From a virus, in the IMG/VR virus record IMGVR_UViG_3300026484_000157, positions 62,001-126,000 of that record: a stretch of 64,000 nucleotides of DNA, one strand, 5' to 3'. The notes under the pieces were generated by a model. The model did no database searches. It saw only the letters and a program-made list of their open reading frames with translations, and was not told where the DNA came from. The position numbers and the translations under genes were made by a program. Positions 3,479 through 62,281 of this stretch are shown here, piece by piece. Positions within the stretch are counted from its first letter, which is position 1; each line of letters starts with the position of its first letter.

Positions 3479-3503
3479 ATTCTCAAATTCTATCGTTTAT
3501 AAA
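3475..3503 (+). promoter_or_regulatory. Promoter TTAAAT-N17-TATAAA
   Basis: Fits the window-wide promoter pattern (TTAAAA-like hexamer, exactly 17 bp, TATAAA). It begins on the stop codon of the beta-barrel gene and serves the helicase at 3530. ATACCC (3502-3507) and GGGTAT just before the ATG form a 6-bp inverted repeat around the leader. Confidence 0.6.
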
Positions 3504-3529
3504 TACCCAGTAAAAATCAAGGGTATAAA

Positions 3530-7076: not shown

Positions 7077-7078
7077 TA

Positions 7079-7107
7079 TTAAAACTTCCACATTTTGTTT
7101 TTATAAA
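7079..7107 (+). promoter_or_regulatory. Promoter TTAAAA-N17-TATAAA
   Basis: Consensus hexamers with a 17-bp spacer, starting two bases after the helicase stop. The spacer holds CCACATTTT, complementary to the start region of the next gene (see 7088-7127). Confidence 0.7.
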
Positions 7108-7127
7108 TCAGTATAAATAAAATGTGG
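7088..7127 (+). promoter_or_regulatory. Inverted repeat hiding the start codon
   Basis: CCACATTTT (7088-7096) and AAAATGTGG (7119-7127), 9 bp perfect. The left arm is inside the promoter spacer, the right arm covers the GTG start at 7124. In transcripts from upstream the start would be paired; in transcripts begun at this promoter the left arm is absent. Confidence 0.55.
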
Positions 7128-12335: not shown

Positions 12336-12374
12336 TTTTATAGAAATTTGAGAAGAAAATCGTTTAATCTAGTA

Positions 12375-12403
12375 TTAAAACTTTTGAAATTCAATTTTAT
12401 AGG
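12375..12403 (+). promoter_or_regulatory. Promoter TTAAAA-N17-TATAGG
   Basis: Consensus phage promoter with a downstream ATATAA block and the leader AAGGATAACAACATG (class I). Only weak complementarity to the RBS here. Confidence 0.7.
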
Positions 12404-12436
12404 AATATAAGAATTAAACAAATCAAGGATAACAAC

Positions 12437-13441
12437 ATGGCAACAAGAAGAGACTTAGACAGAACAATTTCGGCAATCGCATCAGGTATTTTACAAGTTA
12501 TTGATACATATAATTTAACAGGTGATCTTCCATCAGGAAAAGATACAAACATTGAACCAAACATTGCTAAAATTTTCAACAAAGAATTTGGTTGGGCAAT
12601 TGGTAGAGGCGATTATGAAACTGCAATCGATATGATCTCTGAATGGTACCAAATTTTGTTCCTTGAAAGAGCAGATAAATTGCTTGGGGAATATACACCA
12701 TCTTGGGAAGAAGGACATATATCACCATTATTGGGATATTTAAAGCTTTCAATGATAAGAGCAGCACAACAAGTATCAATTAAATTTACTAAAATTAGAC
12801 AAAGAGAACAACAAGTCAACCCAATTGATGATGAATCTTACGATGATGCACTTAACAGAATAATGAACACTCCAAAAAGTGGAAAGATCATTCATGAAAA
12901 TGACCCTATGATATTAGAGTTGGAAGAAATTATCGAGTATTATGAAGCTAACCCATCTGAGAACAATGATAAGAAACTTAAAAAAGCAAAAGAAAAACTA
13001 GATCTAATATTCAACCCAAAGAAAGTACTTCATGATGTAGATGTATTCTTAAATAAAGAGTTTGATGTTATTGATGAAATTGCTTATGAGAGAATTCTTG
13101 CTGACCTTAAAAAGATAATCAAAGGTAGACAAAATTATGAAATCCAAATTAAAATTCTAGATTTATTGTTAGCAGACTTCGCTCCATCTGAAATTGCAAG
13201 ATTATTAAATGTATCAGCAGCAAAAATATCACAAAGAAAGAAAACATTACTTGATGATATCACAAAACTAGCAAAAAAATATAGTGAAGAGGGTGATTCA
13301 ACATTAGATGAGTTCCTTGAGGACAGACTAAGTAAGAAAAATTCTACTAAATCAAAATCTGGTGTTACTGGTAATAGAAAACAAGAGACTAATGTTGAGT
13401 GTCTTCTAACAACAGCAGCACTAATGGGAATTAAATTATAA
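12437..13441 (+). CDS. Sigma-70-like factor (putative)
   Basis: 334 aa. The C-terminal part contains a region-4-like helix-turn-helix: LDLLLADFAPSEIARLLNVSAAK (two helices about residues 243-265), followed by a basic helix. The N-terminal part (AIGRGDYETAID and the helical stretch after it) is reminiscent of region 2. A mid-section of about 90 residues is charged. This would redirect host RNA polymerase to phage promoters, possibly the TTAAAA-N17-TATAAG family. It is much divergent from housekeeping sigma; a non-sigma HTH regulator is the alternative. Confidence 0.55.
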   Translation: MATRRDLDRTISAIASGILQVIDTYNLTGDLPSGKDTNIEPNIAKIFNKEFGWAIGRGDYETAIDMISEWYQILFLERADKLLGEYTPSWEEGHISPLLGYLKLSMIRAAQQVSIKFTKIRQREQQVNPIDDESYDDALNRIMNTPKSGKIIHENDPMILELEEIIEYYEANPSENNDKKLKKAKEKLDLIFNPKKVLHDVDVFLNKEFDVIDEIAYERILADLKKIIKGRQNYEIQIKILDLLLADFAPSEIARLLNVSAAKISQRKKTLLDDITKLAKKYSEEGDSTLDEFLEDRLSKKNSTKSKSGVTGNRKQETNVECLLTTAALMGIKL

Positions 13442-14418: not shown

Positions 14419-16287
14419 ATGGCTGATGTTTATTCTCTTGAAAAAGGTCTGGATCATCTTTATCCAGAATATCAACTACAATATAAAGATAATATTGATG
14501 GGTTTAACAAGACATTTAATCCATCAATGATTGATGTGAATAAAACTATGTTCAAGAAATCTATGGAAATGATAGAGCATCATAAATGGATGAAAGAATG
14601 TAAATTCACACTAGCAACATATACTGATCCAAAAGAGGATTATGAATTAGATATTGAAAAGTTTGACAACATTGATCAGCTAATTGCTCTAATAGACGAC
14701 CGATGTGAAATGCAAGACCCAGAGGATAACCCAGTCCTAAAAGAGCCAAAGAAAATTGTCGCATTCGATTTAGAAACAACTGGTCTTAGAAACAGACATC
14801 AGAGAATTGGTGGTAAAAAAGAGTCACAAGTAGGTATTGTTGGAATATGTGTTGCATATTCTGAAACTGAGGGTTATTATATACCAATTAAACATAATGA
14901 GTTAGATGGCATTAAGAATTGGACTATTCAAGATGCAGTTAAGCTTATCAATTATTTCCAACAAGATAACCATCTGGTAATATGGCACAATGCAATATAC
15001 GATTTATTTGTAAGTATATCATCAGGTGTAACTTTGAATAAATCAATGAACCATGATACCTATTTATTATGGAAGATGACATTTGAGGAAGAATTTAGCA
15101 ATCTATTTCAATACGGACTAAAGCTCTTATCAGAAAGATTCCTTAAAAGAAAAATGCAGACAATTAACGATCTGCTTGGTGTTGATGCGAAAGCACACAT
15201 AGAATTTCAGAGATTACCATCTGTAAATGCAGTAACCTATGCAGTGTCTGATGCAACTAACACTTATGCACTTTGGAAATATCTATTTAGCAAAAAATTC
15301 AGAAGAAACCCATATACTAAACAGCCAATAGCAACTAGACTGGAAATGCGATCTATCTATGATTCATTATCAATGCTAAGTACTGGGATTCCAATAAACA
15401 CAAGTCATGCAATCCCAATGCTGAAAACAATTTACAGAAGACAAATATTATTACAGAGTAAATTTGACCAATTGGTAGGTGATGGATTCACAGTAATAAC
15501 TAGTGATGAAAAATGTGGAATGTATATTGGTAAAACAATAATGGGTGCTTGGGAAGAGTCAGGAAAAGACAAAGATCAGGGATATAAATTTTTGGAAGAA
15601 AAATTTGGAATGAAGATGACTGTTAGAAATGGTGCAGGTGGAGTGAAAAAAGAGACATTCTCAAATGCTGATTCAGTTCTTGAAGCATTACTTAAATCTC
15701 TCCCAAATATGGATTTCATTAAAGATGAACAGAAGAAATCTTTAACATCAATCATTAAATATATACAAGCATATCGATCATTAGACCATGAAAGATCTGG
15801 ATATCTTGGAATAATAAGATCAGTAACATTGGATGATAGAGGATATCCTTTTGTTCACAACTCGCTGAACCTTAATGGTACCGACTGTGTAATAAAAGAT
15901 ACACCAATAAACATAAGAGTTAACAAATCTAATAAGCCAATATCCACGACGATGGACAAGCTAGATAGATATTGTGATTATGATGATCTTGAGGGCGAAT
16001 ATGAGTTTAATGAATACATAGAAATTGAAACTATTGATGGCTGGGTACATATAACTCATTTTGTTACTAAACATAAAGACACAATTGAAATATCAACTAA
16101 ATCAAGATCTATTGGTGTAGCAACTAGACATAGATTCATGAATGAAAATGACAGATGGATATATGCTAATGAATTGAAAATTGGGGATTTTGTCAAAACA
16201 ATAGATGGTTATGAAGAGGTTACAAAGATAATCAATTTAAAAGGACAAATGACATATGATATTGTCACCAACCACAAACAATTATAA
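14419..16287 (+). CDS. polA: Family A DNA polymerase, N-terminal fragment plus N-intein
   Basis: 622 aa. Residues 110-290 form a DEDD 3'-5' exonuclease: D117/E119 in AFDLETTG, D195 in WHNAIYDL, D278 in YAVSDATN. Residues 300-489 correspond to the thumb of a Pol I-type enzyme. At residue 490 the chain enters an intein after LNLNGTD with CVIKDTPI; the intein block TKHKDTIEISTKSRSIGVATRH is Hint-like. The frame stops after MTYDIVTNHKQL, in the middle of the last intein strands. The remainder starts at 17091. Splicing would create GTD-TGRYS, matching the T-x-TGR motif of family A. The palm with the catalytic Asp residues is in neither fragment. Confidence 0.85.
   Translation: MADVYSLEKGLDHLYPEYQLQYKDNIDGFNKTFNPSMIDVNKTMFKKSMEMIEHHKWMKECKFTLATYTDPKEDYELDIEKFDNIDQLIALIDDRCEMQDPEDNPVLKEPKKIVAFDLETTGLRNRHQRIGGKKESQVGIVGICVAYSETEGYYIPIKHNELDGIKNWTIQDAVKLINYFQQDNHLVIWHNAIYDLFVSISSGVTLNKSMNHDTYLLWKMTFEEEFSNLFQYGLKLLSERFLKRKMQTINDLLGVDAKAHIEFQRLPSVNAVTYAVSDATNTYALWKYLFSKKFRRNPYTKQPIATRLEMRSIYDSLSMLSTGIPINTSHAIPMLKTIYRRQILLQSKFDQLVGDGFTVITSDEKCGMYIGKTIMGAWEESGKDKDQGYKFLEEKFGMKMTVRNGAGGVKKETFSNADSVLEALLKSLPNMDFIKDEQKKSLTSIIKYIQAYRSLDHERSGYLGIIRSVTLDDRGYPFVHNSLNLNGTDCVIKDTPINIRVNKSNKPISTTMDKLDRYCDYDDLEGEYEFNEYIEIETIDGWVHITHFVTKHKDTIEISTKSRSIGVATRHRFMNENDRWIYANELKIGDFVKTIDGYEEVTKIINLKGQMTYDIVTNHKQL
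15886..16284 (+). other. N-intein (133 aa) in DNA polymerase
   Basis: Starts at Cys (TGT 15886) directly after GTD and holds an N-terminal splicing block (CVIKDTPINI) and a TRHRF block with the conserved His. Ends at the stop codon before the C-terminal HN block, which is encoded at 17091-17135. Confidence 0.8.
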
Positions 16288-17104
16288 GACAATAAAATCA
16301 TATACAAATGGCTTCACAAATATAAAGAAATTTGTGAAGCTACTACACACTAATAAAGGTTACAACTTTAAGAGATACAACTTCATGTATCCAATCAGAT
16401 TCAAGATAGTTCTGTTCTTATTCATAATGAGGGAGCAGAACTCAATATATAAGTATAAAATTCCAGAAAACTGTAAAATGAGATATGATACTGATAAAAT
16501 CATAATAACATGTCCATTTCATGGAGACTTCAGTCAAAGAATAATAAAACACATAAGTGGTAATGGTTGCCCAAAATGTGCATCAAATATACGGCTGACA
16601 AATGAAGAATTCGACTCGAGATTGAAGTTAATAGATAAAAGTTTGATAAGATTAGATGAATATATTTCAATGGAACATGGACTAGATATAAAATGTATGA
16701 GATGTGGAGATATATTTAATAAAACTCCAAATATATTATTATATGGTAATAGTGGATGTAGTGTATGCAGATCTAAAGAATCTAAAGGTTCATTAGAAAT
16801 TTCACATCAACTAAATCTATTCAAAGTAAGGTATATTAAAGAATATAGATTCAAGGATATAGCAAGAATGCCATTTGATTTTTATTTGCCAGATTATAAT
16901 ATATGCATCGAATATGATGGGGAACAACACTTCACATATAATAATCCATTTAGTTCGTTAGTAGGAAATACTATTAAAAATGACCAAATCAAGAACAATT
17001 TCTGTGCTAAGAACAATATCAAATTAATCAGGATACCCTATACAAGTTATAAGGATATAAGATTAATAATAGTAACAATAAAGGACAACAATGAAAAGAT
17101 ATGA
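16256..17104 (+). CDS. Vsr-like (EDxHD-fold) homing endonuclease
   Basis: 282 aa from 16256 (AAAAGGACAA lies 11 bases upstream); ATG 16428 is an alternative start. Zinc-finger repeats ITCPFHGDFSQ ... GNGCPKC and a second CMRCG ... GCSVC precede a nuclease domain MPFDFYLPDYNICIEYDGEQHF with a C-terminal IKLIRIPY, the layout of Vsr-like homing endonucleases. It sits exactly in the break of the polymerase intein, overlapping the N-intein gene by 32 bp and the C-intein gene by 14 bp. It would spread the fractured intein by cutting uninterrupted polymerase genes. Confidence 0.8.
   Translation: MILSPTTNNYKTIKSYTNGFTNIKKFVKLLHTNKGYNFKRYNFMYPIRFKIVLFLFIMREQNSIYKYKIPENCKMRYDTDKIIITCPFHGDFSQRIIKHISGNGCPKCASNIRLTNEEFDSRLKLIDKSLIRLDEYISMEHGLDIKCMRCGDIFNKTPNILLYGNSGCSVCRSKESKGSLEISHQLNLFKVRYIKEYRFKDIARMPFDFYLPDYNICIEYDGEQHFTYNNPFSSLVGNTIKNDQIKNNFCAKNNIKLIRIPYTSYKDIRLIIVTIKDNNEKI
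16311..16340 (+). repeat. Perfect 11-bp inverted repeat
   Basis: GCTTCACAAAT, 8-nt loop, ATTTGTGAAGC, 24 bases after the N-intein stop, inside the 5' part of the endonuclease frame. It could damp translation of the endonuclease from the polymerase mRNA. Confidence 0.45.
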
Positions 17105-17405: not shown

Positions 17406-19709
17406 ATGAAATTAGATGAGTTTCAACAAAAGATAGTTGATAGCAACCAAGATCAATCAACTCTAGTTACTATTACGGCAGGTGCAGGATGTGTAGCATA
17501 TGACACCCCAATTGTAGTAAAAATAAAAGATAACATACCACAAGATGTTTATTATAAGCTTTCCAAAATATTAAATGATAAAATGATAACCACAATAGAA
17601 ATTTCGAAGTTATTCGAAATCAAGGATCTTCTTGAATATATAGAAATAGACACACCTGATGGTTGGCAACCGATAGATGATGTGTTTGAAACTGGTGATA
17701 AAAAGTCATATAACATAACGACTGAGACTGGTGATATAACTGTTTCTGAAGATCATTGGTTATTAGACAACAACAATAACTGGTCTTCTGTCGCTTCGCT
17801 TCATGTTGATGATATAATACAAACCAGAGATGGGAACGAGAAGATTATATCGAAGAAATCAATTGGTACAATAAAAACTATGGACATTACTGTTGGACAT
17901 GAGAATCATAGATATTACACTCAAAATATAATATCACACAACAGTGGTAAAAGCACTGTTTTCGCAAATAAAATAGCTAGGTTAATTTTAGAAGGTCATG
18001 CAAAACCTGATGAGATAATAACACTAACCTTCACAAATAAAGCAGCACGGGATATTAAAAGTAAAATAAAAGCACTACTTCCAAAGGGTGCTGAACTTCC
18101 ACATGTATCAACAATTCATAGCTTATTTATCAAACTACTAAGAGATTTCAAAGTCAATCCTATTGTAATGAATGAATGGGGCAATATTTTAACTTTGAGA
18201 TCAATTATTGAACAACATTACCAATTTGATACAAAAGGTGAGCTTACTGCATTTACTAGAGATATTCTTGCTTATGTAGATCAATATCAATTATCTGCTC
18301 CTGATATCAACATTGATGACTGGAAATTATCTGATTATGTTGAAGATTGTACAATCACAAGTAAAAAATTTAACAAAATTTACAAAGAATATGATAAGTT
18401 TAAGAGGGAGAAGAATTTATGGTCGTATAACGATTTAATTTCATCTAGAGTAAAAGAAGTAATCGATTTTAATAAAATTAATAGTTCAACCAAATATTTA
18501 TTCAATGATGAGGCTCATGATGAGACATTGGCAGAATTACTTCTAATAAGAGATATAGCAAGTCAAAATATCTTATATAACATACAAGATAACTGCCAAG
18601 AAATTTATGGGTGGAGATTTAGTCGTGCTGATCTATTAGCAGATAAATCCTTTTGGGCAGATCACTTCAATAAATATGAAGAGTACAAACTTCTGAAAAA
18701 TTATAGATCAACTGAAAATATATTGAAAGTGTCGAATTTATATAGATCACATCTGGATGATATCCAATTAATACCCACTAAAGAAAACTTGAAGGGATCA
18801 GTTAAAATATCTCAGGTGGAAATGGAAACTCATGAAGGTAAATATATCGCAGTTGAGATAAAGAAATTACTGGAAGAGGGTACTGCTCCAAAAGACATAA
18901 CAATATTGGTAAGATCAAATATGTTCATTAAATCAATACTTGAGCCACACTTAATAGAATCAAATATACCTTACACAATTGATACTCCAAAATCAAAAAA
19001 GAAGATGTTTGAATCTCCAATAAACAAGATATTCCTATCATTTATGGAAATATATTCGAATAACGAGAATTTACTAAGCATAATCTCAATATGTGATTAT
19101 TATATTGGTGTTGGTGCAGGATCTAAAAAGACTCTAATGGATTCATTTATTAACACTTCAATGTTAACACCAGATAAGAAATTCGATAACATAAGATACA
19201 CTTTTAATAACATATGTGAGTTTTCAACTCAATATTCATCTGCTTCAAAATTGCCAGTAATACTAGATTACTTTGAATCTTTAATAAGACAATTCATAAA
19301 AACTTCTGAATACAATGAAAATAAGATCAATCTCATAAGAAAAACTATCACAAATTATGTGTATACAATCTATGAAGATTATCCATCTTACACAATCCAT
19401 GAGATTTTTGCTGAAATTATAACACAAATTGACTCATTTGAAGATGATGCTATGAATAAGGTTAAAATCATGACATATTATGGTGCAAAAGGATTATCAC
19501 TTCCATATGTATTTGTATCAGATATGTCATTAAAAGCACCTAAATCGAATAGTGATAGTGACAATTCATTATATGTAGCATTATCTAGGGCTGAAACAAG
19601 AATGTATATTGTTTCATCAAGTATAAAAATTAACAGAAGTTTTGGCAAAATGAAACAAAATATCCCATCAATATGGACTAAAACATATAACAAGCTTGTT
19701 GGTGGTTAA
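17406..19709 (+). CDS. UvrD/PcrA-type helicase with a mini-intein in the P-loop
   Basis: 767 aa precursor, about 616 aa after splicing. Superfamily 1A 3'-5' helicase: Q-motif at the start (DEFQQKIV), P-loop TAGAG-SGKST interrupted by the intein, motif Ia TLTFTNKAARDI, motif II YLFNDEAHDET, motif IV region LLKNYRSTENI, motif V AKGLSLPYVFVSD, motif VI YVALSRAETRMYIV. Until spliced it cannot bind ATP. RBS AAGGATAACAAC (class I). Role in replication restart or in repair is inferred. Confidence 0.9.
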   Translation: MKLDEFQQKIVDSNQDQSTLVTITAGAGCVAYDTPIVVKIKDNIPQDVYYKLSKILNDKMITTIEISKLFEIKDLLEYIEIDTPDGWQPIDDVFETGDKKSYNITTETGDITVSEDHWLLDNNNNWSSVASLHVDDIIQTRDGNEKIISKKSIGTIKTMDITVGHENHRYYTQNIISHNSGKSTVFANKIARLILEGHAKPDEIITLTFTNKAARDIKSKIKALLPKGAELPHVSTIHSLFIKLLRDFKVNPIVMNEWGNILTLRSIIEQHYQFDTKGELTAFTRDILAYVDQYQLSAPDINIDDWKLSDYVEDCTITSKKFNKIYKEYDKFKREKNLWSYNDLISSRVKEVIDFNKINSSTKYLFNDEAHDETLAELLLIRDIASQNILYNIQDNCQEIYGWRFSRADLLADKSFWADHFNKYEEYKLLKNYRSTENILKVSNLYRSHLDDIQLIPTKENLKGSVKISQVEMETHEGKYIAVEIKKLLEEGTAPKDITILVRSNMFIKSILEPHLIESNIPYTIDTPKSKKKMFESPINKIFLSFMEIYSNNENLLSIISICDYYIGVGAGSKKTLMDSFINTSMLTPDKKFDNIRYTFNNICEFSTQYSSASKLPVILDYFESLIRQFIKTSEYNENKINLIRKTITNYVYTIYEDYPSYTIHEIFAEIITQIDSFEDDAMNKVKIMTYYGAKGLSLPYVFVSDMSLKAPKSNSDSDNSLYVALSRAETRMYIVSSSIKINRSFGKMKQNIPSIWTKTYNKLVGG
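17490..17942 (+). other. Mini-intein (151 aa) in helicase P-loop
   Basis: Cys1 (TGT 17490) to terminal Asn (AAC 17940-17942), ending YYTQNIISHN with Ser +1. Contains the TVSEDHWLL block with its His. No homing endonuclease domain. Insertion point GAG-C...N-SGKST is the ATP-binding loop. Confidence 0.85.
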
Positions 19710-19716
19710 TTTATAG

Positions 19717-19745
19717 TTAAAACTTCTAAATCCTGATTTTATAAG
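19717..19745 (+). promoter_or_regulatory. Promoter TTAAAA-N17-TATAAG with anti-RBS spacer
   Basis: ATCCTGATTTT (19730-19740, spacer and start of -10) pairs with AAAACTCAGGAT (19759-19770, one bulged C), which includes the AGGAT of the RBS. Confidence 0.7.
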
Positions 19746-19776
19746 AACATAACAAATTAAAACTCAGGATAACAAC

Positions 19777-20667
19777 ATGTCAGAATTTAAAAAACTAACA
19801 CTTAGACAACTAGGCTTCATGGATCTATGGATGGAGACGATCAGAGAAAATAATAGAGTGAACCATAAAATTGCACAAAGTTCAATATATTGGGGAACTC
19901 ATATAGATACAACGACTGATTTCTTGTCGTTATTATCAATGTCAGAGGAGCTACCAACATTCGATTACAATAGAATGACATTATCACACATAATAGACTC
20001 ATTAGTAGAAGTCAATGCAATCATAGTATTAGATCCAATCAAGATGATATATAAAGTAACTAACGATATGATAATACATATGTCAACAAAGAAAACAAGA
20101 TTCGAGAGAGGGCAAGATAAAATATTCACAGCTGTCAATCTTAAAATATTTAGAGATTGGGTTAACAGCACAAGAATAACTGGAGATACTATAGTTAGTT
20201 ACAACTCATTCATGGACTCAACATCTGATGAAACATTTAGAGAAATTAAGGAATCTCTTAAAGGCTGTAAAGAACATAAGAAATTCCTCAAAGGTAAAAG
20301 CCAAGAGTTCTTAGACAAATATGAAGATGGATTTTTAGCAAAAATGTCCTATAGCCATCTGAGATACCTTGTAACCAGATTAAGCGATGCTAAGCTACTG
20401 ACTAAATATAAACCAAAAGGAACAAGAAACATTTATACAGTTACCCCAGAATTTGTTGATGTATTAGGAAGACATAAAATCGCTTTTGCTGAAACTCCAG
20501 TTTATACTTATATAAAACCAAAAAAGAAGAGAGTAAAAGAGATCGAGCTAAAAACTGAGGATCTAGATACATTAATAGAAGAACTGATGAATATGAGAAG
20601 TGGTAATTCTAACAAATGTAGAATAGATGCTGATAATACCATCATTGAGTTAAGTTTCAAACAATAG
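19777..20667 (+). CDS. Hypothetical protein with winged-helix-like segments
   Basis: 296 aa. Two stretches look like winged helices: IIDSLVEVNAIIVLDPIKMIYKVT-type near residues 70-95 and LVTRLSDAKLLTKYKPKG near 190-210. Basic linkers. It heads a long run of unknown genes behind a phage-type promoter. Possibly DNA-binding; no family assigned. Confidence 0.6.
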   Translation: MSEFKKLTLRQLGFMDLWMETIRENNRVNHKIAQSSIYWGTHIDTTTDFLSLLSMSEELPTFDYNRMTLSHIIDSLVEVNAIIVLDPIKMIYKVTNDMIIHMSTKKTRFERGQDKIFTAVNLKIFRDWVNSTRITGDTIVSYNSFMDSTSDETFREIKESLKGCKEHKKFLKGKSQEFLDKYEDGFLAKMSYSHLRYLVTRLSDAKLLTKYKPKGTRNIYTVTPEFVDVLGRHKIAFAETPVYTYIKPKKKRVKEIELKTEDLDTLIEELMNMRSGNSNKCRIDADNTIIELSFKQ

Positions 20668-20669
20668 TA

Positions 20670-20698
20670 TTAAAATTTTTGAAATTCAATTTTATAAG
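20670..20698 (+). promoter_or_regulatory. Promoter TTAAAA-N17-TATAAG
   Basis: Consensus hexamers, ACATAAG after the -10, class I leader AAAGGATAACAACATG. Only partial complementarity between spacer and RBS. Confidence 0.7.
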
Positions 20699-20728
20699 AA
20701 CATAAGATAAAAATCAAAGGATAACAAC

Positions 20729-22966: not shown

Positions 22967-23222
22967 ATTCAATAGAATAAGATTTAAAATCGAAGAAAGA
23001 GAACGATTAGAGTTAGAAGCAGATAGAATAACTGCTGAATATAATAATTCTATCACAGAAATCACATCACAAATTGCAGATCTGGATATAGATCACAAAT
23101 ATGAAGTCGCATATAATATTGGAGTTTATGCTAAAGAAAACTACAAAAAGTGTGAAAATATGACGATCTATGAAGCATATAAATATGTGGATATGCTAAT
23201 GGAAAAATATGAAGATGAATAG
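22950..23222 (+). CDS. Hypothetical helical protein (90 aa)
   Basis: Charged, probably coiled-coil in the first half (IEERERLELEADRITAEY). Overlaps the previous gene by 17 bp. Unknown. Confidence 0.55.
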   Translation: MLIKAKFNRIRFKIEERERLELEADRITAEYNNSITEITSQIADLDIDHKYEVAYNIGVYAKENYKKCENMTIYEAYKYVDMLMEKYEDE

Positions 23223-23225
23223 GTA

Positions 23226-23254
23226 TTAAAACTTCGGCTACCTAATTTTATACA
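23226..23254 (+). promoter_or_regulatory. Promoter TTAAAA-N17-TATACA
   Basis: Consensus geometry, ACATAAG block, class I leader AAAGGATAACAACATG. The spacer segment CCTAATTTT has only interrupted complementarity to AAAATTAAAGG. Confidence 0.65.
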
Positions 23255-23284
23255 AACATAAGATAAAAATTAAAGGATAACAAC

Positions 23285-28774: not shown

Positions 28775-29485
28775 ATGGCATATCAAGCTGAAGAACTAGA
28801 ATTAGACGACATCGAGATCAAAGAAGAGGATCTTTCAAAACTAAAGTTAAAATTTGATCAAGACAAACAAAAAGTTAGAATTGGTTTCCCACTATTAGGA
28901 AAAACAGGTAAAGTAGCAATTAAGAGAATCAGATATTTTCCATTCTCTGAAAAATACAGAAAGCAATTTCTTGTAACAGGTGATGAGGAATTTGATAAAG
29001 AAATTGAAAAGTATATGGGTGCACCAAAAGACAAATATGTTACTGCAGTGGTACATTACCAAACTGACATGAATGGAAAACTTATTAAGAATGGTGGTCT
29101 TAGTTACATAATCAGACCTTTTGTAATTCCACAAAATAAACTGCCAGTTTTACAAGCAAGTTCAGCTGAGTTTCCATTGAATGAGCATGATTACATTCTT
29201 ACTTGTACAAATAAACAGTTCCAAAATTTTGATCTTAGCCCAACTAAAGATGCAATTTGGTTAAAAAATGACAAGATTAAATCTCAAATCATGTCAGAAA
29301 TTCAAGAAATGAATGAGGCAGGTCTTCATCAAGCAGTTGCGATCGAAGCATCTAAAGAGAAGATCAAAGAGTGGTTAGAAATTGGCAAAGAACCAGATCC
29401 TGAGCCAGAAGATGTTCCAGAACCATCAGGTGGATCAATCGATCTAGATGATGACGATGATATATCGGATCTTCTAGAAGATTAA
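28775..29485 (+). CDS. ssb: Single-stranded DNA-binding protein (putative)
   Basis: 236 aa. A beta-rich core (residues 20-150) with many aromatic and basic residues is followed by helices and a Pro-rich linker, ending in a very acidic tail DLDDDDDISDLLED, as in SSB, T7 gp2.5 and T4 gp32. It sits in the replication block and has an isolated transcription unit closed by a strong terminator. It is not close to a named SSB family, so the call rests on architecture and context. Confidence 0.55.
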   Translation: MAYQAEELELDDIEIKEEDLSKLKLKFDQDKQKVRIGFPLLGKTGKVAIKRIRYFPFSEKYRKQFLVTGDEEFDKEIEKYMGAPKDKYVTAVVHYQTDMNGKLIKNGGLSYIIRPFVIPQNKLPVLQASSAEFPLNEHDYILTCTNKQFQNFDLSPTKDAIWLKNDKIKSQIMSEIQEMNEAGLHQAVAIEASKEKIKEWLEIGKEPDPEPEDVPEPSGGSIDLDDDDDISDLLED

Positions 29486-29493
29486 CTCCAAAC

Positions 29494-29522
29494 AAGTCGG
29501 CATTTGCCGACTTAGTTTTATT
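29494..29522 (+). terminator. Intrinsic terminator after SSB gene
   Basis: AAGTCGGCA and TGCCGACTT (9 bp, very short loop, functionally 8 bp with ATTT loop) followed by AGTTTTATT. One of the best GC-rich terminators in the window. Confidence 0.8.
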
Positions 29523-29649
29523 AGAGTTGGACATCGGATAGAGCAAAACAATCTACAATAGTGAAGTTGTTATCCTTAGTAGAACTTGCAAAAATCGTAT
29601 AAGACATAAAATCCTATGACTCTATCAGGTGTTCAACTCTAATAAAACT
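29514..29649 (+). ncRNA. Structured RNA with anti-leader segment
   Basis: The ends form a 20-bp stem: AGTTTTATTAGAGTTGGACA (29514-29533) with the complementary 29630-29649, one G-U pair. A three-by-three internal loop and a second 7-bp stem GATAGAG (29537-29543) / CTCTATC (29620-29626) follow. The enclosed 76 bases contain GTTGTTATCCTT (29566-29577), the exact complement of the class I leader AAGGATAACAAC used by at least a dozen genes here. Could be a trans-acting RNA, the 5' UTR of the methyltransferase gene, or both. No clear promoter is seen right before it. Confidence 0.6.
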
Positions 29650-29676: not shown

Positions 29677-31089
29677 ATGGCAAAGAAAAATAAAGAAAAA
29701 CCATTTGATTATGAAACATACAGGGATCTACTTACTAGAGTTCCAACTCATGAAGAAGCTAAAGCAATTCATAAAACATTAGCACCTAAAATCAGATCAT
29801 TAGCACCAGAAGAATATTATAATATGGATTCTGAAAAATTATGGGAATATGCAGTTGCTTATTCTTGGGATGCACATATAAGCCCTTTTAATTATGGGGA
29901 TAATACTCCAAATATCAAAGATCTAAATAACCTACTTAAAGTTAATACAAGAGCAAATATCAATGCTCAACTTGAAATAGGAAGAGGTACAAATGGTCTT
30001 AAATTCCTTAATTATTATGTTAAGGAATATTTATACAACACAGAAATTGGTGGCAGAAGTAAAACTATGATTGAAGCTAAAGATGATATTTCTTTTGTTT
30101 ATAAAGTTGTAATCAAATTAATGTACCACTCTTGTACTAATATAACAAGAAACAACATATATTCATTTTTCAAAATTGCATCTATCCAAGTTCCATCAAA
30201 CTTCAAACCTGCAGTTGCTTCAGTACTATGGGATAAGCTTGGAATTCAAAAGTTAGATAAAGATGCTACCCAATTAAATATTCTATGCCCATCAGAGGGT
30301 TGGGTATCAAGATGTTTATCGTCATATAAAATTGCACATGATAATCCACATATAAAGATAAGATATCATACAATAGATCCTAATCCACAAGTAAAAGTTG
30401 CATATAATACAATGACTAAATTTCTTAAAAATTTTGGTGGTTTCAATCGAGTTAAAAATTGGGAGACTACCTACCATTTCGGTGGATCTCAAGACATAGA
30501 ATCAATCCCAACCGACTTAATAGGTAGTATGGATGTAGTTGGAACATCTCCACCTTATTTTGGAATAACTGAGTTATACGGCTTTAACATTGCATTAATA
30601 GGGGACAATGAATTTGATCCAACTAAAGGATTCCAAACTGATCATGGCAATATGATGGTTGAAGATCTACCAGAGTTCCTAGTAACAAACCCAACTGCAG
30701 ACTCGGTTACTCAATTTGATAAAGAATTTAAAATAATAAAAACTAATGATCTTGAGAAAGATTTCACATCAGCAAACCCAAATTGTGTTTATTTTTGGGA
30801 GGCATCACAAGCATCTAACATTGACTCATACACTGGTTGGCAAGAAGAATATTTAAGACCGACAATTACAAATGCACATATAGCACTTAAAGAAAATGGA
30901 TATTTATGGATAAATGTTGCAAATTCTAAGGGTATGCCTACATTTGAGGACGATGTAACCAAAATTGTTGAAGAATGTGGATTTGAACATGTCGAAACAT
31001 ATAAAATGCTAATATCAAGATCACCTGCTCTTAAAGACAAAACTAAAAATAAACCATTTGAACCAATTTTCATATTTAAGAAGAGATAA
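29677..31089 (+). CDS. SAM-dependent DNA methyltransferase (TSPPY type)
   Basis: 470 aa. Catalytic motif IV is VGTSPPYFG near residue 290; a motif I-like stretch LNILCPSEGWVSRCL lies before it, and ENGYLWINVANSKG with the final FEPIFIFKK strand matches the end of the fold. TSPPY is typical of amino-methyltransferases acting on N4-cytosine or N6-adenine. No cognate nuclease is nearby, so it likely protects phage DNA. Start 29677 chosen for leader AAAGGATTCGGAAACC (class II); a frame from 29629 lies within the structured RNA. Confidence 0.7.
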   Translation: MAKKNKEKPFDYETYRDLLTRVPTHEEAKAIHKTLAPKIRSLAPEEYYNMDSEKLWEYAVAYSWDAHISPFNYGDNTPNIKDLNNLLKVNTRANINAQLEIGRGTNGLKFLNYYVKEYLYNTEIGGRSKTMIEAKDDISFVYKVVIKLMYHSCTNITRNNIYSFFKIASIQVPSNFKPAVASVLWDKLGIQKLDKDATQLNILCPSEGWVSRCLSSYKIAHDNPHIKIRYHTIDPNPQVKVAYNTMTKFLKNFGGFNRVKNWETTYHFGGSQDIESIPTDLIGSMDVVGTSPPYFGITELYGFNIALIGDNEFDPTKGFQTDHGNMMVEDLPEFLVTNPTADSVTQFDKEFKIIKTNDLEKDFTSANPNCVYFWEASQASNIDSYTGWQEEYLRPTITNAHIALKENGYLWINVANSKGMPTFEDDVTKIVEECGFEHVETYKMLISRSPALKDKTKNKPFEPIFIFKKR

Positions 31090-49223: not shown

Positions 49224-49648
49224 ACTTCAATCGTGAAATTAAATTTAAAGCATTAGGACATCCTGATAAATCATCTAAAAATAGATGGATATATGGCACT
49301 AATATCTATGCCAATGAGAACACAGATATGGATATTCATTCATTGGCAGCATACGAAAGACTAATGAGGGGTAACCATTTAAATGCAAAAACTAGATGTC
49401 AGTTCACTAATTGTTTCTCTAAAAATGGCGATGAACTATATGAGGGAGATATCATCTTATGGAATGGTATTGTAAACTACATAAAATTGGTAAAAGGAGC
49501 ATACTCATTGGTAAATAACAAATCGAACAACTATAGATATTTATTTGTGGTTGCAAACAACTGTGAAATTATCGGCAATATTCACATTGAAAATAAATAC
49601 TATAAAGTAACAGACTCTGGTGAGGTAATATTTGGAATTGGATATTAA
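49220..49648 (+). CDS. YopX-family protein
   Basis: 142 aa. NREIKFKALG at the start, SKNGDELYEGDIILWNG in the middle and EIIGNIHIEN at the end are the typical YopX landmarks. The family is common in phages; its function is unknown. Confidence 0.75.
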   Translation: MNFNREIKFKALGHPDKSSKNRWIYGTNIYANENTDMDIHSLAAYERLMRGNHLNAKTRCQFTNCFSKNGDELYEGDIILWNGIVNYIKLVKGAYSLVNNKSNNYRYLFVVANNCEIIGNIHIENKYYKVTDSGEVIFGIGY

Positions 49649-49673
49649 AACTTTTATCATTTGATTTTATAAG
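49645..49673 (+). promoter_or_regulatory. Promoter TTAAAA-N17-TATAAG with anti-RBS spacer
   Basis: TTATC and TTGATTTT (49654-49668) pair with AAAATCAA and GATAA (49688-49701) of the class I leader. Confidence 0.7.
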
Positions 49674-49705
49674 AACATAACAAATCAAAAATCAAGGATA
49701 ACAAC

Positions 49706-53510: not shown

Positions 53511-53767
53511 TGCCAAGTTATAAAACAATAGAGATATCGGTTGATGAAGGGAGATATAGATTTCAACAAGCAGATGATTCTAACAAAATCAAATTAATTG
53601 AGTCATCAACAGGTAAAACTATTGAAGTTTTTGATATTGATTTAGAACACAAGTTGCTAGGATCTGGTGGTGGATTCCTAAGTCTTAATGAATCTTTTGG
53701 TTACAATGTTTCTAAATATAAATCTCTTGGGGAGGTAATTGAATATGCTCACAAAATGTATAGTTAA
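53510..53767 (+). CDS. Hypothetical protein (85 aa)
   Basis: TAATG junction. Beta-rich first half. Its end overlaps the next promoter. Unknown. Confidence 0.55.
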   Translation: MPSYKTIEISVDEGRYRFQQADDSNKIKLIESSTGKTIEVFDIDLEHKLLGSGGGFLSLNESFGYNVSKYKSLGEVIEYAHKMYS

Positions 53768-53792
53768 AATTTTGGCTATTTAATTTTATAAA
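53764..53792 (+). promoter_or_regulatory. Promoter TTAAAA-N17-TATAAA
   Basis: Starts on the stop codon of the upstream gene; ACATAAC after the -10, class I leader. TTTAATTT (53779-53786) pairs with AAATTAAA (53801-53808), which does not reach the RBS. Confidence 0.65.
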
Positions 53793-53826
53793 GACATAAC
53801 AAATTAAAACATTCAAGGATAACAAC

Positions 53827-55353: not shown

Positions 55354-56202
55354 ATGTTCAATATCATATCAGGTGTAAGCTCTAAAGCTGATAAGAGTAC
55401 AGTGGCAACTCAGCTAACTACAGTACTCAGAAACTTTAAGAAGAGAAATAAAGATGCATTCAAAATTGGAGTTATCACTATCAATAAGAAAGTGCCAATT
55501 GCAATTTATTGGGCAGAGGTTGGAGAAAAATACCCAGGCATAGATGGTAAATATCCAACTGTTGAAAATCGTAGATTAGAAGTTGGTACAAAATTTTTAG
55601 CAGCAATTCCAACATCATCAGATCTTACTAAAAAGAATGCACTATTCATTTATGATGAGATTAGTAATTCTTGGGGACGAATACCAGGGGCTTATTATAA
55701 GAAGATTATTGAAGCATCAGATATTCGACAATCAGTCTTAGAAACAGTTTTGGAAAAGAAAGAACTGAATGAAAAACAAGCAATCCTAGATGAGGAAATA
55801 AAATTAGCTGAGCTAATTGATGATTATTCTAAATTAGCTGAAAAATTTGCCAATGAACTTAGACCTGTAAGTAGATTTGGTGCTGATTTCAAATCTAAAG
55901 ATGGTCAAATTCCTGACATCTATTTCCAAGAATGGCAAGATTGGGATATGGGGACACCATCGGTTGATGTTCGTTATCGTATCAATGAGTCTTTTAGAGA
56001 AAGAACATCAAATCATTCATTAGAATTTTCATTTTCAAGTGGTCGTATTAGCAATGATGAAGATCGAAAAGAACTAGTGAAAATCACAGAAGAGATTGGT
56101 AAAATGCAATCTATTCTTGCAAAACATAAGGTTGGTCTTGATAATGCATATGACAAGATCAATAACAAACAAGATCAAATATGGGAAATGAAAAAATCAT
56201 AA
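55354..56202 (+). CDS. Hypothetical protein with IISGV N-terminus (282 aa)
   Basis: MFNIISGVSSKADKS resembles the IIAGI tag. Middle: helical coil (about residues 130-180); later a beta-rich part. RBS AAAGGAGAATAAACA. Unknown. Confidence 0.6.
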   Translation: MFNIISGVSSKADKSTVATQLTTVLRNFKKRNKDAFKIGVITINKKVPIAIYWAEVGEKYPGIDGKYPTVENRRLEVGTKFLAAIPTSSDLTKKNALFIYDEISNSWGRIPGAYYKKIIEASDIRQSVLETVLEKKELNEKQAILDEEIKLAELIDDYSKLAEKFANELRPVSRFGADFKSKDGQIPDIYFQEWQDWDMGTPSVDVRYRINESFRERTSNHSLEFSFSSGRISNDEDRKELVKITEEIGKMQSILAKHKVGLDNAYDKINNKQDQIWEMKKS

Positions 56203-56209
56203 TTCATAG

Positions 56210-56238
56210 TTAAAACAGTTATCCTTTGATTTTATAGG
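56210..56238 (+). promoter_or_regulatory. Promoter TTAAAA-N17-TATAGG with anti-RBS spacer
   Basis: Consensus promoter whose spacer and -10 start form the left arm of the strongest repeat of this kind (56218-56265). Confidence 0.75.
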
Positions 56239-56265
56239 AACATAAGATAAAAATCAAAGGATAAC
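56218..56265 (+). promoter_or_regulatory. 16-bp perfect inverted repeat, promoter spacer to RBS
   Basis: GTTATCCTTTGATTTT (56218-56233) and AAAATCAAAGGATAAC (56250-56265). The right arm includes AAGGATAAC of the leader, four bases before ATG. Confidence 0.85.
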
Positions 56266-56268
56266 AAA

Positions 56269-57078
56269 ATGTCAAAACAACCAACAATCTCACTAGAACA
56301 ACTTCAAAAGTCAGTGCCATCAGCATTCACAACATCAAGATACTCAAAAGCTTCAGAAAAATACCAAGTTGCAAACACATCAGAAATCGTTAAAGAGTTC
56401 ATGAAAAGTGGATGGGATATTACTCGAGCAACACAATCTATGGTAAACAACCCAGAGAAACAAGGTTATCAGTTCCACTCAATAAGAATGAGAAATCAAG
56501 ATATAAAAATCAGTGAAAATAATAAAGAGTTTGCTGAAATTGTAATTACTAATGGTCATGATACAAATCACCTACTTACAATCAGTATGGGTATTTATAG
56601 ACAAATTTGCTCAAATGGACTAGTAGTTTCGGATTCTTATATTGAGCCTATCAAAATAAAACATGTTGGGGAGACCTTTAAAACTGAATTGGCTCAGGCA
56701 ATAACTTATGCATCTGAAAAAACAGAGGATTTAAAAAGATTGATGAATACAATGAAAGATAAAGAAATTACCGATGAACAGCAACTAATGATGGCTAAGC
56801 AATTCTTTGAATTCAGAATGGAAAAAGAACCAACTGATACACAAATTGATCAAATACTAACGGCTCATCGTGAAGAAGATGATGGTAACCAACTATGGGT
56901 AACATACAACCTGCTTCAGGAAAATATTATCCAAGGTAAATTCACATATGAAGTTAAGAAGCTGATAAAAGATAAAAAGACAAAGATCTCTGAATACCAA
57001 GCTAAGGCAATATCTTCTGTTGCAAAAATACAAGACCTGAATAAAAAGATGTTCGATAGTGCGATGAGTTATGCTTAA
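56269..57078 (+). CDS. DUF932-family protein
   Basis: 269 aa. SAFTTSRYSKASEKYQVANTSEIVKEF, then NGHDTNHLLTISMGIYRQICSNGLVV match the DUF932/DUF945 plan (P-x-S-x-RY ... HD ... R-x-C-x-NGL). Plasmids and phages carry it near recombination genes; the mechanism is not established. Own promoter and hairpin-controlled RBS. Confidence 0.75.
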   Translation: MSKQPTISLEQLQKSVPSAFTTSRYSKASEKYQVANTSEIVKEFMKSGWDITRATQSMVNNPEKQGYQFHSIRMRNQDIKISENNKEFAEIVITNGHDTNHLLTISMGIYRQICSNGLVVSDSYIEPIKIKHVGETFKTELAQAITYASEKTEDLKRLMNTMKDKEITDEQQLMMAKQFFEFRMEKEPTDTQIDQILTAHREEDDGNQLWVTYNLLQENIIQGKFTYEVKKLIKDKKTKISEYQAKAISSVAKIQDLNKKMFDSAMSYA

Positions 57079-57930: not shown

Positions 57931-57972
57931 ACAAACCCCAATAGCCCACAATAAAATCTCTCACAAATAGTA

Positions 57973-58001
57973 TTAAAATTCCAATTATCCAATTTTATAA
58001 G
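57973..58001 (+). promoter_or_regulatory. Promoter TTAAAA-N17-TATAAG (first of tandem)
   Basis: Consensus promoter with GAACATAAG after the -10, but no gene starts behind it before the second promoter. Confidence 0.65.
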
Positions 58002-58011
58002 AACATAAGAC

Positions 58012-58057
58012 ATAAATCCAAAAACCTAGTATTAAAATTTTCGGTTTTTGGATTTAT
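58012..58057 (+). promoter_or_regulatory. 15-bp perfect inverted repeat around second -35
   Basis: ATAAATCCAAAAACC (58012-58026) and GGTTTTTGGATTTAT (58043-58057). The loop is the -35 TTAAAA and neighbours of the second promoter. Confidence 0.75.
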
Positions 58058-58060
58058 GAG
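58032..58060 (+). promoter_or_regulatory. Promoter TTAAAA-N17-TATGAG (second of tandem)
   Basis: Weaker -10 than the others; leader is class I AAGGATAACAACATG. Confidence 0.5.
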
Positions 58061-58091
58061 GAAATAGAAAATAAAATTCAAGGATAACAAC

Positions 58092-58743: not shown

Positions 58744-59028
58744 ATGGCAAATTACAGAGAGTTGAAAAAGAAATATCAAAATGATCCAGTAATGTTAGGT
58801 TTCGTTTCTTGTGAAGGAGATCTGGACTGTATAAATGAAAAACTGCATGAAGCAGGTAATGGATCAGATTTCACATTACAAGAAATTGCCGACATTTTAG
58901 GAATAACAAGAGAAAGAGTGAGACAGATTGAATCTAGTGCAATTAAAAAATTAAGACACCCTAAAGTTGGTCGGTCTTTAAATACATATGTGCATGAGCA
59001 CATAACTGATACACCTAATGGATTCTAG
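58744..59028 (+). CDS. Stand-alone sigma-70 region 4 protein
   Basis: 94 aa. FTLQEIADILGITRERVRQIESSAIKKLRHPKVGRSL matches region 4.2 of housekeeping sigma almost word for word (TRERVRQIE and KLRHP). No region 2 is present, so it cannot open a promoter alone. It may replace or compete with host sigma region 4 at -35 elements, or bind the RNA polymerase beta flap, as other phage appropriators do. RBS AAAAGGAAATCCATT. Confidence 0.85.
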   Translation: MANYRELKKKYQNDPVMLGFVSCEGDLDCINEKLHEAGNGSDFTLQEIADILGITRERVRQIESSAIKKLRHPKVGRSLNTYVHEHITDTPNGF

Positions 59029-59101
59029 TAATAGAATCCATCTTAAATCAAGATTGTGCACAACTTACATAAAAATGAAATCAAATAAAAAAAGGACTCA
59101 A

Positions 59102-60499
59102 ATGGAAAATGAAACAATATTAGTCGAAGGTAAAATCAATATTTTGCTTGATCATCTATATGGCTCATCTGCTAAAGGGCAAGTATGTGCAGCGATAGCA
59201 GATAAAGAACGACCAAGTATTCTTATTGCTAATCATAGCACATCGGCATCACATACAGTAATGGAAGGGGATGAAGAATTTGTATTTAAGGCTCTACCAT
59301 CTGCAACATTCTTATGTAAAACAAGAGATGACTACAATCCATCAATATTTATGGCAGCATCATCAGGATTTGAAATTGATCAAGTTATCAAAGAGATGAA
59401 ATGGATCAATAATCCAGAAATTAAAGTTTATGTACATCCATATGCAGTTATAGTTCTTCAGGAACATAAAAATCTAGAAGCAGGTCTTAATAGAGATGGG
59501 TCTTCATCTGATAACAGTGGAACATTACATCTTGGATCTACAATGAGTGGACAATCTTATGCATTTGCAGATAAAATGACAAGAAGATCACCATCATCAT
59601 TAGCGAAGGATTATGCTGAGGAACTATATAAACATAATATTATAGTTATGGCTACACCATGGGCATTCCAACTACAATTATTATCAGAATTAGCAAAGGA
59701 TGATGCAACTGCTCTTGCTGAAATGCCACAAGGATTTCCATTGTCAATTGATCATGGACCAGAGTTTCCTTATTCAACATTCAGAAACATTACACCTATG
59801 CAATTATTGGCAGACTTAGGTCTTAATGAAGCATATTTAGGATCAGTTATTGGTAATATTAGATCACTCCCTATCAGAGTCAGTAACAGATTTGTTGGTA
59901 ATAACATGGACAATGTAATGTTATTCGCTAAATTTGATGCTGAAAACAAGATGAGTGAGTCATCTTGGAACACACCAGAGCAACTTGGAATGACATATTC
60001 AGATGTAAATGCAATCACATATGATCTATTGATGGGTAATGAAAAACGATTCAAAAATTGGATCATAACAGACATTAAAGGTGTAACTGGAACATCTGGA
60101 CCATTTGAAGAAGATATGGAGGAGATTTCATGGAGAGAATTATCTGATCATTTAACCTCAATTGCAGGTAAAGATGTAAATGTTGAAGAAATTACTACAC
60201 TTACAAAATTAAATAGAAGAATAGCAAAAATAGCCGATGAGAGATCATTATCTATAGATATGCTGATGAAATTTATGGTAGCAGTTAATCCTACTCATCT
60301 ATCAATCACATTCTTGAACTATATTGATCCAAACTTGGAAGGTGCTACTTCAATAGAGGAGATCAACAAAAGTGAGATATTTAATGATTGGTCTATTAGA
60401 GCAATTGAAGACTTGAGAGAAGCATATAATGGTGAGGTATTTCCAAAAATTACTGCTCTTCAAACTGGTAAATATTTAGAAAATGTAATATTCATTTAA
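59102..60499 (+). CDS. Adenylosuccinate synthetase homologue (PurA/PurZ-like)
   Basis: 465 aa. Landmarks of the family are present in order: YGSSAKGQV at residues 20-28 (where PurA has GDEGKGK), ASHTV (catalytic His), GSTMSGQSYAFADKMTR, QGFPLSIDHG-x3-PY. The catalytic Asp of PurA is replaced by Ser, as I recall for PurZ, which makes the precursor of 2-aminoadenine DNA from dGMP and Asp. The Asp-binding Arg loop is not clear. Longer than known PurZ. The exact substrate is undecided. Start 59102 follows AAAAGGACTCAA. Confidence 0.65.
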   Translation: MENETILVEGKINILLDHLYGSSAKGQVCAAIADKERPSILIANHSTSASHTVMEGDEEFVFKALPSATFLCKTRDDYNPSIFMAASSGFEIDQVIKEMKWINNPEIKVYVHPYAVIVLQEHKNLEAGLNRDGSSSDNSGTLHLGSTMSGQSYAFADKMTRRSPSSLAKDYAEELYKHNIIVMATPWAFQLQLLSELAKDDATALAEMPQGFPLSIDHGPEFPYSTFRNITPMQLLADLGLNEAYLGSVIGNIRSLPIRVSNRFVGNNMDNVMLFAKFDAENKMSESSWNTPEQLGMTYSDVNAITYDLLMGNEKRFKNWIITDIKGVTGTSGPFEEDMEEISWRELSDHLTSIAGKDVNVEEITTLTKLNRRIAKIADERSLSIDMLMKFMVAVNPTHLSITFLNYIDPNLEGATSIEEINKSEIFNDWSIRAIEDLREAYNGEVFPKITALQTGKYLENVIFI

Positions 60500-61786: not shown

Positions 61787-61864
61787 GTCACGATAGACGG
61801 TTATTAGGAAGACCTCACTTATAATAGTAAGATAGCACTGGTTCGAATCCAGTTCGTGACACCA
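61787..61864 (+). tRNA. tRNA-like gene with 8-nt anticodon loop, isotype unresolved
   Basis: Acceptor GTCACGA / TCGTGAC (7 bp), discriminator A and encoded CCA. T arm ACTGG-TTCGAAT-CCAGT is perfect. Variable region ATAGC. Anticodon stem CTCAC / GTAAG has one C-A mismatch and encloses eight bases, TTATAATA, not seven. D arm has a GG (TTAGGAA) but a poor three-base stem. The anticodon cannot be set with confidence. It may be a decaying tRNA, or a phage tRNA with a special loop. Confidence 0.7.
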
Positions 61865-61892: not shown

Positions 61893-62219
61893 ATGAATAG
61901 AAAAATGAACTTATTAATGGCATCAGCTATGGTCGGTATGGCTTCAATGGGGATAAGCCCACAATATAATCCTATGAGATTACCAAGAGTAGGCACTAAA
62001 GATCACGAACCTCAAAGTGACGAAGATATACAGAATATGTTATCTAAGGCTGAAATCAAAAGACAAAGAAAATTTGATAAGAAGTGTAATTCATGTCGTT
62101 TCCTTGTTAAAAACTGTAACCACCATGATGACTGTTTGTACTTTTGTAACCATCCAAGTAATCCAGAAGATACTGAAGGTAACAACAGAATGAGTATTTG
62201 CCCAATTTTTAAAATGTAG
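61893..62219 (+). CDS. Hypothetical Cys-rich protein with hydrophobic N-terminus
   Basis: 108 aa. MNRKMNLLMASAMVGMASMG could be a weak signal or membrane anchor; then CNSCRFLVKNCNHHDDCLYFCNH and a final CPIF, six or more Cys for metal binding. RBS AAGAGAATAATA. Unknown. Confidence 0.55.
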   Translation: MNRKMNLLMASAMVGMASMGISPQYNPMRLPRVGTKDHEPQSDEDIQNMLSKAEIKRQRKFDKKCNSCRFLVKNCNHHDDCLYFCNHPSNPEDTEGNNRMSICPIFKM

Positions 62220-62221
62220 TA

Positions 62222-62250
62222 TTAAAATTCCAAAAATTCGATTTTATAGG
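62222..62250 (+). promoter_or_regulatory. Promoter TTAAAA-N17-TATAGG with anti-RBS spacer
   Basis: TCGATTTT (62238-62245) can pair with AAAATTGA (62264-62271, one G-U), which runs into the RBS GAGGATAAC. Confidence 0.7.
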
Positions 62251-62281
62251 AACATAAGAAATAAAAATTGAGGATAACAAC

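What the first reader, a model, noticed from the sequence alone, without database searches (positions are those of the whole stretch)
29514..29649. Candidate trans-acting RNA with a 12-base complement to the phage's own leader
A 20-bp closing stem (one G-U) frames a 136-base RNA right after the SSB terminator. It exposes GTTGTTATCCTT (29566-29577), an exact antisense to AAGGATAACAAC, the leader in front of genes at 12437, 17406, 20729, 23285, 31133, 49706, 53827 and 58092 (19777 and 62282 match 11 bases). One small RNA could thus switch translation of a whole gene set. I know no phage RNA of this kind.
Basis: partly seen in the sequence, partly recalled or inferred. Interest (0 to 1): 0.9.

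Follow-up and report, generated by a model that had tools for sequence, protein, structure and literature searches.

The report
Intercistronic stem; leader is phage promoter module
The hairpin and the 12-base match are real, but the matched "leader" is the ribosome-binding end of a promoter that this phage reuses about ten times, several copies of which hide their own start site by pairing in cis, so a separate trans-acting RNA is possible but not the likeliest reading.

Summary
The sequence facts hold: a 29-pair stem closes 29514-29649 (the window's top-listed inverted repeat, fold z -7.3), and 29566-29577 is the exact complement of AAGGATAACAAC, found before eight window genes and one more elsewhere in the 126-kb phage. 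The 12-mer is the Shine-Dalgarno end of a recurrent promoter module (TATTAAAA-N-TTTTATAAGAACATAA-N-AAGGATAACAAC-ATG; ten strong copies). Several copies carry a spacer complementary to their own leader, cognate pairs beating swapped pairs (p 0.0026). Read-through mRNA would hide the start site and promoter-born mRNA free it, as for T4 gene e. The element has no promoter of this class, no terminator of its own, a 5' arm that uses the SSB terminator's U-tract, a loop no more structured than chance, and an antisense segment mostly paired. Most likely it is an intercistronic mRNA stem between the SSB-like gene and a methyltransferase-like gene, with an incidental match. Still, the 12-mer is expected 0.003 times genome-wide and only one other place pairs as well, so a trans role stays open (about 0.2). 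No close relatives were found, so conservation could not be tested.

The parts
28775..29485 (+). SSB-like gene (236 aa, acidic tail); identity by context and composition only
   Evidence: No PHROG, Pfam, NCBIfam or PDB match; weak match to an ORF near a UvsX-like match in another virus record
29494..29523 (+). Intrinsic terminator of the SSB-like gene; its T-rich tail (29514-29523) is the start of the long stem's 5' arm
29514..29543 (+). 5' arm of the long stem
29566..29577 (+). GTTGTTATCCTT, exact complement of the shared leader AAGGATAACAAC; about 70% paired over GUUGUU
29620..29649 (+). 3' arm of the long stem
29677..31089 (+). Methyltransferase-like gene downstream (470 aa, TSPPYFG motif); own Shine-Dalgarno AAAGGA about 10 bases before its ATG
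   Evidence: PF01555 E 0.009, below cut-off
12365..12436 (+). Promoter-leader module
   Evidence: score 52.4
19707..19776 (+). Promoter-leader module; spacer ATCCTGA matches its own variant leader TCAGGAT
20660..20728 (+). Promoter-leader module
23216..23284 (+). Promoter-leader module
49635..49705 (+). Promoter-leader module with partial spacer-leader hairpin
53754..53826 (+). Promoter-leader module
56200..56268 (+). Promoter-leader module; spacer GTTATCCTTTGATTTT pairs 16/16 with leader AAAATCAAAGGATAAC
57963..58091 (+). Strong module plus a weak second promoter (58022), nested hairpins before gene 58092
62212..62281 (+). Promoter-leader module with G-U containing spacer-leader hairpin

Best explanation
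Two things coincide here. (1) AAGGATAACAAC is the Shine-Dalgarno/5'-UTR end of a phage promoter class used at least ten times (shown by sequence). At several copies the promoter's -35/-10 spacer is complementary to the leader, so an mRNA reading in from upstream folds the ribosome-binding site away while an mRNA begun at the promoter lacks the 5' arm and is translated (pairing shown by sequence; effect on translation inferred by analogy with T4 gene e). (2) The 29514-29649 element is an intercistronic stem on the mRNA that reads through the SSB-gene terminator into the methyltransferase-like gene. A nearly perfect 29-pair stem is most simply an mRNA processing or stability structure, for example an RNase III target or a 3'-end barrier (inferred). 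The 12-base complement in its loop is then incidental, or has a minor secondary effect.
For: Module: ten strong sites scoring 47-55, the next at 18.5, none in the element (best -14.9). Cognate spacer-leader duplexes stronger than swapped ones, mean -8.5 against -6.8 kcal/mol, permutation p 0.0026. RBS-sequestering helices at 12 of 45 gapped starts at p<=0.05 (2.25 expected), no excess inside genes; 13 of 49 in a first version. T4 gene e gives the same anatomy under the same folding, and its mechanism is described in PMC3014915. Element: stem z -7.3, loop z +0.45, terminator overlapping the 5' arm and no + strand promoter in the gap.
Against: The complement is rarer than chance allows for a pre-specified place, and it lies in the strongest inverted repeat of the window. 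No direct evidence for processing or stability; there is no transcript data. A hairpin test shifted to -47..-29 was also enriched (10 of 45), partly through terminators, so enrichment at the ribosome-binding site alone is not specific; the cognate-swap test is the better support. Only about half of the modules have a convincing spacer-leader hairpin.
Confidence: 0.52

Rival explanations
1. Trans-acting antisense RNA: the element, released from read-through mRNA by processing, pairs through GUUGUUAUCCUU with the leader of promoter-born mRNAs of about ten genes and blocks 30S binding.
For: Exact 12-base complement expected 0.003 times. Of 3258 overlapping windows on the + strand only the 56269 spacer and the element reach -17.3 kcal/mol with the leader consensus. 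Net interaction after opening both partners -8 to -11.5 kcal/mol for promoter-born leaders. The target covers the Shine-Dalgarno up to the start codon.
Against: No promoter or own terminator. Segment fully open only 0.7% of the time. Match stops at exactly 12 bases. Loop unstructured beyond chance. A post hoc match. No relatives to test conservation.
Confidence: 0.2
2. Cis leader of the methyltransferase-like gene: ATCCTT (29572) or AATCCT (29611) in the loop pairs with that gene's own Shine-Dalgarno (AAAGGATT), as a pseudoknot or as a competing fold.
For: Six-base complements AATCCT/AGGATT found as the best helix for this start. Cis hiding of start sites recurs in this phage.
Against: Helix for 29677 not significant, p 0.13; six-base matches to a Shine-Dalgarno are common; the long stem ends about 12 bases before it.
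Confidence: 0.1
3. DNA-level feature: an inverted-repeat protein site, origin structure, or a small non-autonomous mobile element with 30-bp terminal repeats.
For: Sharp 30-nt inverted ends; single unit of 136 bp.
Against: Single copy in the genome. The arm pattern has only three chance hits elsewhere, two of which (L016, L017) are nearly the same sequence and none of which shows the element. No target duplication seen. Two of the three DNA mismatches in the arms are G-U in RNA.
Confidence: 0.1

Closest known systems
T4 genes e, soc, 49 and I-TevI: start site hidden in read-through transcripts (PMC3014915)
   Same: Promoter lies in or beside the 5' strand of a hairpin whose 3' strand is the Shine-Dalgarno; promoter-born mRNA lacks the 5' strand (T4 e folded here)
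   Different: Here it is built into a recurring promoter class with a shared leader and occurs at more genes; promoter sequence is not the T4 late TATAAATA
Phage trans-acting sRNAs such as PreS, VpdS, 24B_1, P22 sar (review PMC12197685)
   Same: Phage-encoded RNA with short complementarity to mRNA; sar blocks translation initiation of a phage gene
   Different: Those have mapped transcripts; none in the passages of that review read here targets one leader shared by many phage genes. The element has no mapped transcript, promoter or terminator
Intercistronic RNase III stems of phages such as T7 (own knowledge)
   Same: Long perfect stem between two co-directional genes
   Different: T7 sites are shorter hairpins with small loops (own knowledge); here the loop is 76 nt and cleavage is untested

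Membership tests
T4 gene e-type start-site hiding (promoter modules) | Shine-Dalgarno paired in read-through mRNA | tested here: met
   56269 -18.4, L005:15240 -13.2, 19777 -9.4 kcal/mol; clear at roughly half of the modules
T4 gene e-type start-site hiding (promoter modules) | Promoter between the arms, so own transcripts lack the 5' arm | tested here: met
   -10 motif lies between the arms at the scored modules; transcription start not mapped
T4 gene e-type start-site hiding (promoter modules) | Reduced translation of read-through mRNA | not testable with these tools
   Needs reporter or ribosome profiling
T4 gene e-type start-site hiding (element 29514-29649 itself) | 3' arm covers the Shine-Dalgarno | tested here: not met
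   Arm ends at 29649, about 12 bases before the Shine-Dalgarno
Trans-encoded antisense sRNA | Own promoter and a 3' terminator (or defined processing) | tested here: not met
   No promoter in the gap and no terminator at the 3' end; release by processing not testable
Trans-encoded antisense sRNA | Complement to a translation start region | tested here: met
Trans-encoded antisense sRNA | Accessible seed | tested here: inconclusive
   0.7% fully open, opening cost 3 kcal/mol
Trans-encoded antisense sRNA | Conservation of seed and stem in relatives | not testable with these tools
   No close relative found
Known Rfam family | Match at gathering score | tested here: not met
RNase III processing stem | Long double-stranded RNA (more than about 20 bp) | tested here: met
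   22+7 pairs
RNase III processing stem | Cleavage by RNase III | not testable with these tools
   No transcript data

The most novel reading that the evidence does not exclude
A processed phage RNA from behind the SSB-like gene that silences in trans the common leader of a whole promoter class, while read-through copies of some of those leaders are already protected by cis pairing, so that it would act only on promoter-born mRNAs.
Probability: 0.17. Interest if true: 0.85.

Novelty: new variant of a known kind. Interest (0 to 1): 0.38.

Why it matters
If the module reading holds, this phage has made T4's gene-e trick part of a reusable promoter, giving a sequence-readable example of translation being tied to which promoter an mRNA came from. 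If the trans RNA were real as well, it would be a regulon-wide antisense RNA in a lytic-type phage; the review PMC3014915 (2010) states that no such RNA had been functionally characterized from T4.

Tried and rejected
Homology of the element to the promoter modules (p 0.23). Inverted or decayed promoter in the element: best scores -14.9 (+) and -17.8 (-). Rfam at permissive threshold: only chance-level hits. Leader peptide: GTG 29561 VKLLSLVELAKIV without a clear Shine-Dalgarno. Relatives: SSB, methyltransferase, ligase and UvsX-like proteins, the promoter-leader pattern and the arm pattern gave no relative carrying the element; terminase and helicase gave only 28-30% relatives. The two records with SSB-like matches are GC-rich; in the better one (G002) the next gene follows after about 9 bases with no element, which is too distant to count against conservation.

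Full report
Where it is. The window is bases 62001-126000 of a 126,269-base virus record, AT-rich (window GC 31%), with the long ORFs laid out along the + strand. Phage character: tail sheath, large terminase, DnaB-like helicase, UvsX-like recombinase, DNA ligase. Relatives are remote: no match of the element region or the downstream gene in 50,697 phage records, and about 45-47% identity at best for the tail sheath.

The observation. The inverted repeat is real and strong. The pairs are 29514-29535 with 29628-29649, then 29537-29543 with 29620-29626. The complement GTTGTTATCCTT at 29566 and the leader positions are as described. Significance: expected count 0.0034 for the exact 12-mer on the + strand of about 124 kb; 7 of 20,000 shuffled loops contain any 12-mer antisense to any of the leaders; in a scan of 3258 overlapping 76-base windows only the 56269 spacer and the element reach -17.3 kcal/mol with the leader consensus. 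The choice of this match was post hoc, so these figures overstate the case; I take them as moderate evidence.

What the leader is. Laying out the sequence before the leader genes showed a common upstream block, and a weight matrix finds ten strong sites scoring 47-55, then 18.5, 18.5 and 14.8: TATTAAAA, a spacer, TTTTATAAGAACATAA, about 25 bases, ATG. Nine of the ten lie in this window and one in the other half of the genome. The leader is the Shine-Dalgarno end of this module. Two leader genes (17406, 31133) have the leader without a strong promoter hit. The promoter role is inferred from sequence; no start site is mapped.

Cis pairing. In several modules the spacer is the reverse complement of that module's own leader: 16 of 16 at 56269, 15 of 15 at L005:15240, and at 19777 the variant leader TCAGGAT faces the matching spacer ATCCTGA. 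Cognate pairs are stronger than swapped pairs (permutation p 0.0026). Because the -10 lies between the arms, only mRNA coming from upstream can form the hairpin. This is the anatomy of T4 gene e, which I folded as a control and whose mechanism is reviewed in PMC3014915. Hairpins over the start site also occur at genes with other upstream sequences (37209, 48751, 55174, L007:12717). The genome-wide count is 12 of 45 at p<=0.05, with no excess inside genes, but a shifted intergenic control is enriched too (10 of 45), so the count alone does not prove start-site hiding.

What the element is. It follows the SSB-gene terminator directly, and its 5' arm begins with the terminator's U-tract. No promoter of the class is present and no sigma-70-like site on the + strand of the gap, so RNA over the element must come from read-through or an unrecognised promoter. 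There is no terminator at the 3' end. The loop is no more structured than shuffled sequence (z +0.45), so the significant structure is the closing stem. The antisense segment is about 70% paired over GUUGUU and wholly open 0.7% of the time, though opening it costs only 3 kcal/mol. The plainest reading is an intercistronic mRNA stem for processing or stability; this function is inferred, not shown. T4 gene 32 mRNA is unusually stable and is processed near its stop codon, by RNase E, not by a stem (PMC3014915); that is a parallel in setting only.

The trans reading. Net energies of -8 to -11.5 kcal/mol with promoter-born leaders would allow it, and the pairing would cover the ribosome-binding site. 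In read-through mRNA the best-protected leaders would be out of reach (56269 +4.7, L005:15240 -2.5 kcal/mol). I give it about 0.2.

Limits. No expression data; no relatives; promoter and terminator calls rest on sequence. The SSB identity of 28775-29485 is by context only, and the methyltransferase identity of 29677-31089 rests on a sub-threshold Pfam match and a TSPPY motif.

Noticed in passing
61787-61861: tRNA-like sequence with 7-bp acceptor stem, T-arm and encoded CCA; scores 32.8 bits (gathering 29) when searched alone, but missed by ARAGORN and by the whole-window Rfam scan; anticodon arm looks irregular.
   Followed up: partly
59018-60499 and 14419-16287: PurZ-like (NF038379, E 5e-34) and DpoZ-like DNA polymerase (NF038380, E 1.5e-10), both below curated cut-offs; possible 2-aminoadenine genome.
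   Followed up: partly
17406-19709: UvrD-like helicase whose Walker A motif reads TAGAGC then VAYDTPIVV, with helicase similarity resuming at residue 180: looks like an intein at the P-loop.
   Followed up: no
57963-58091: Tandem promoters with nested hairpins (23-nt inner inverted repeat, outer stem from the upstream promoter's spacer to the leader).
   Followed up: partly
16256-17104: HNH/homing-endonuclease-like gene directly after the DNA polymerase gene.
   Followed up: no
3479-3529 and 7077-7123: TATAAATA motifs (T4 late-promoter consensus) near start sites with possible hairpins.
   Followed up: no
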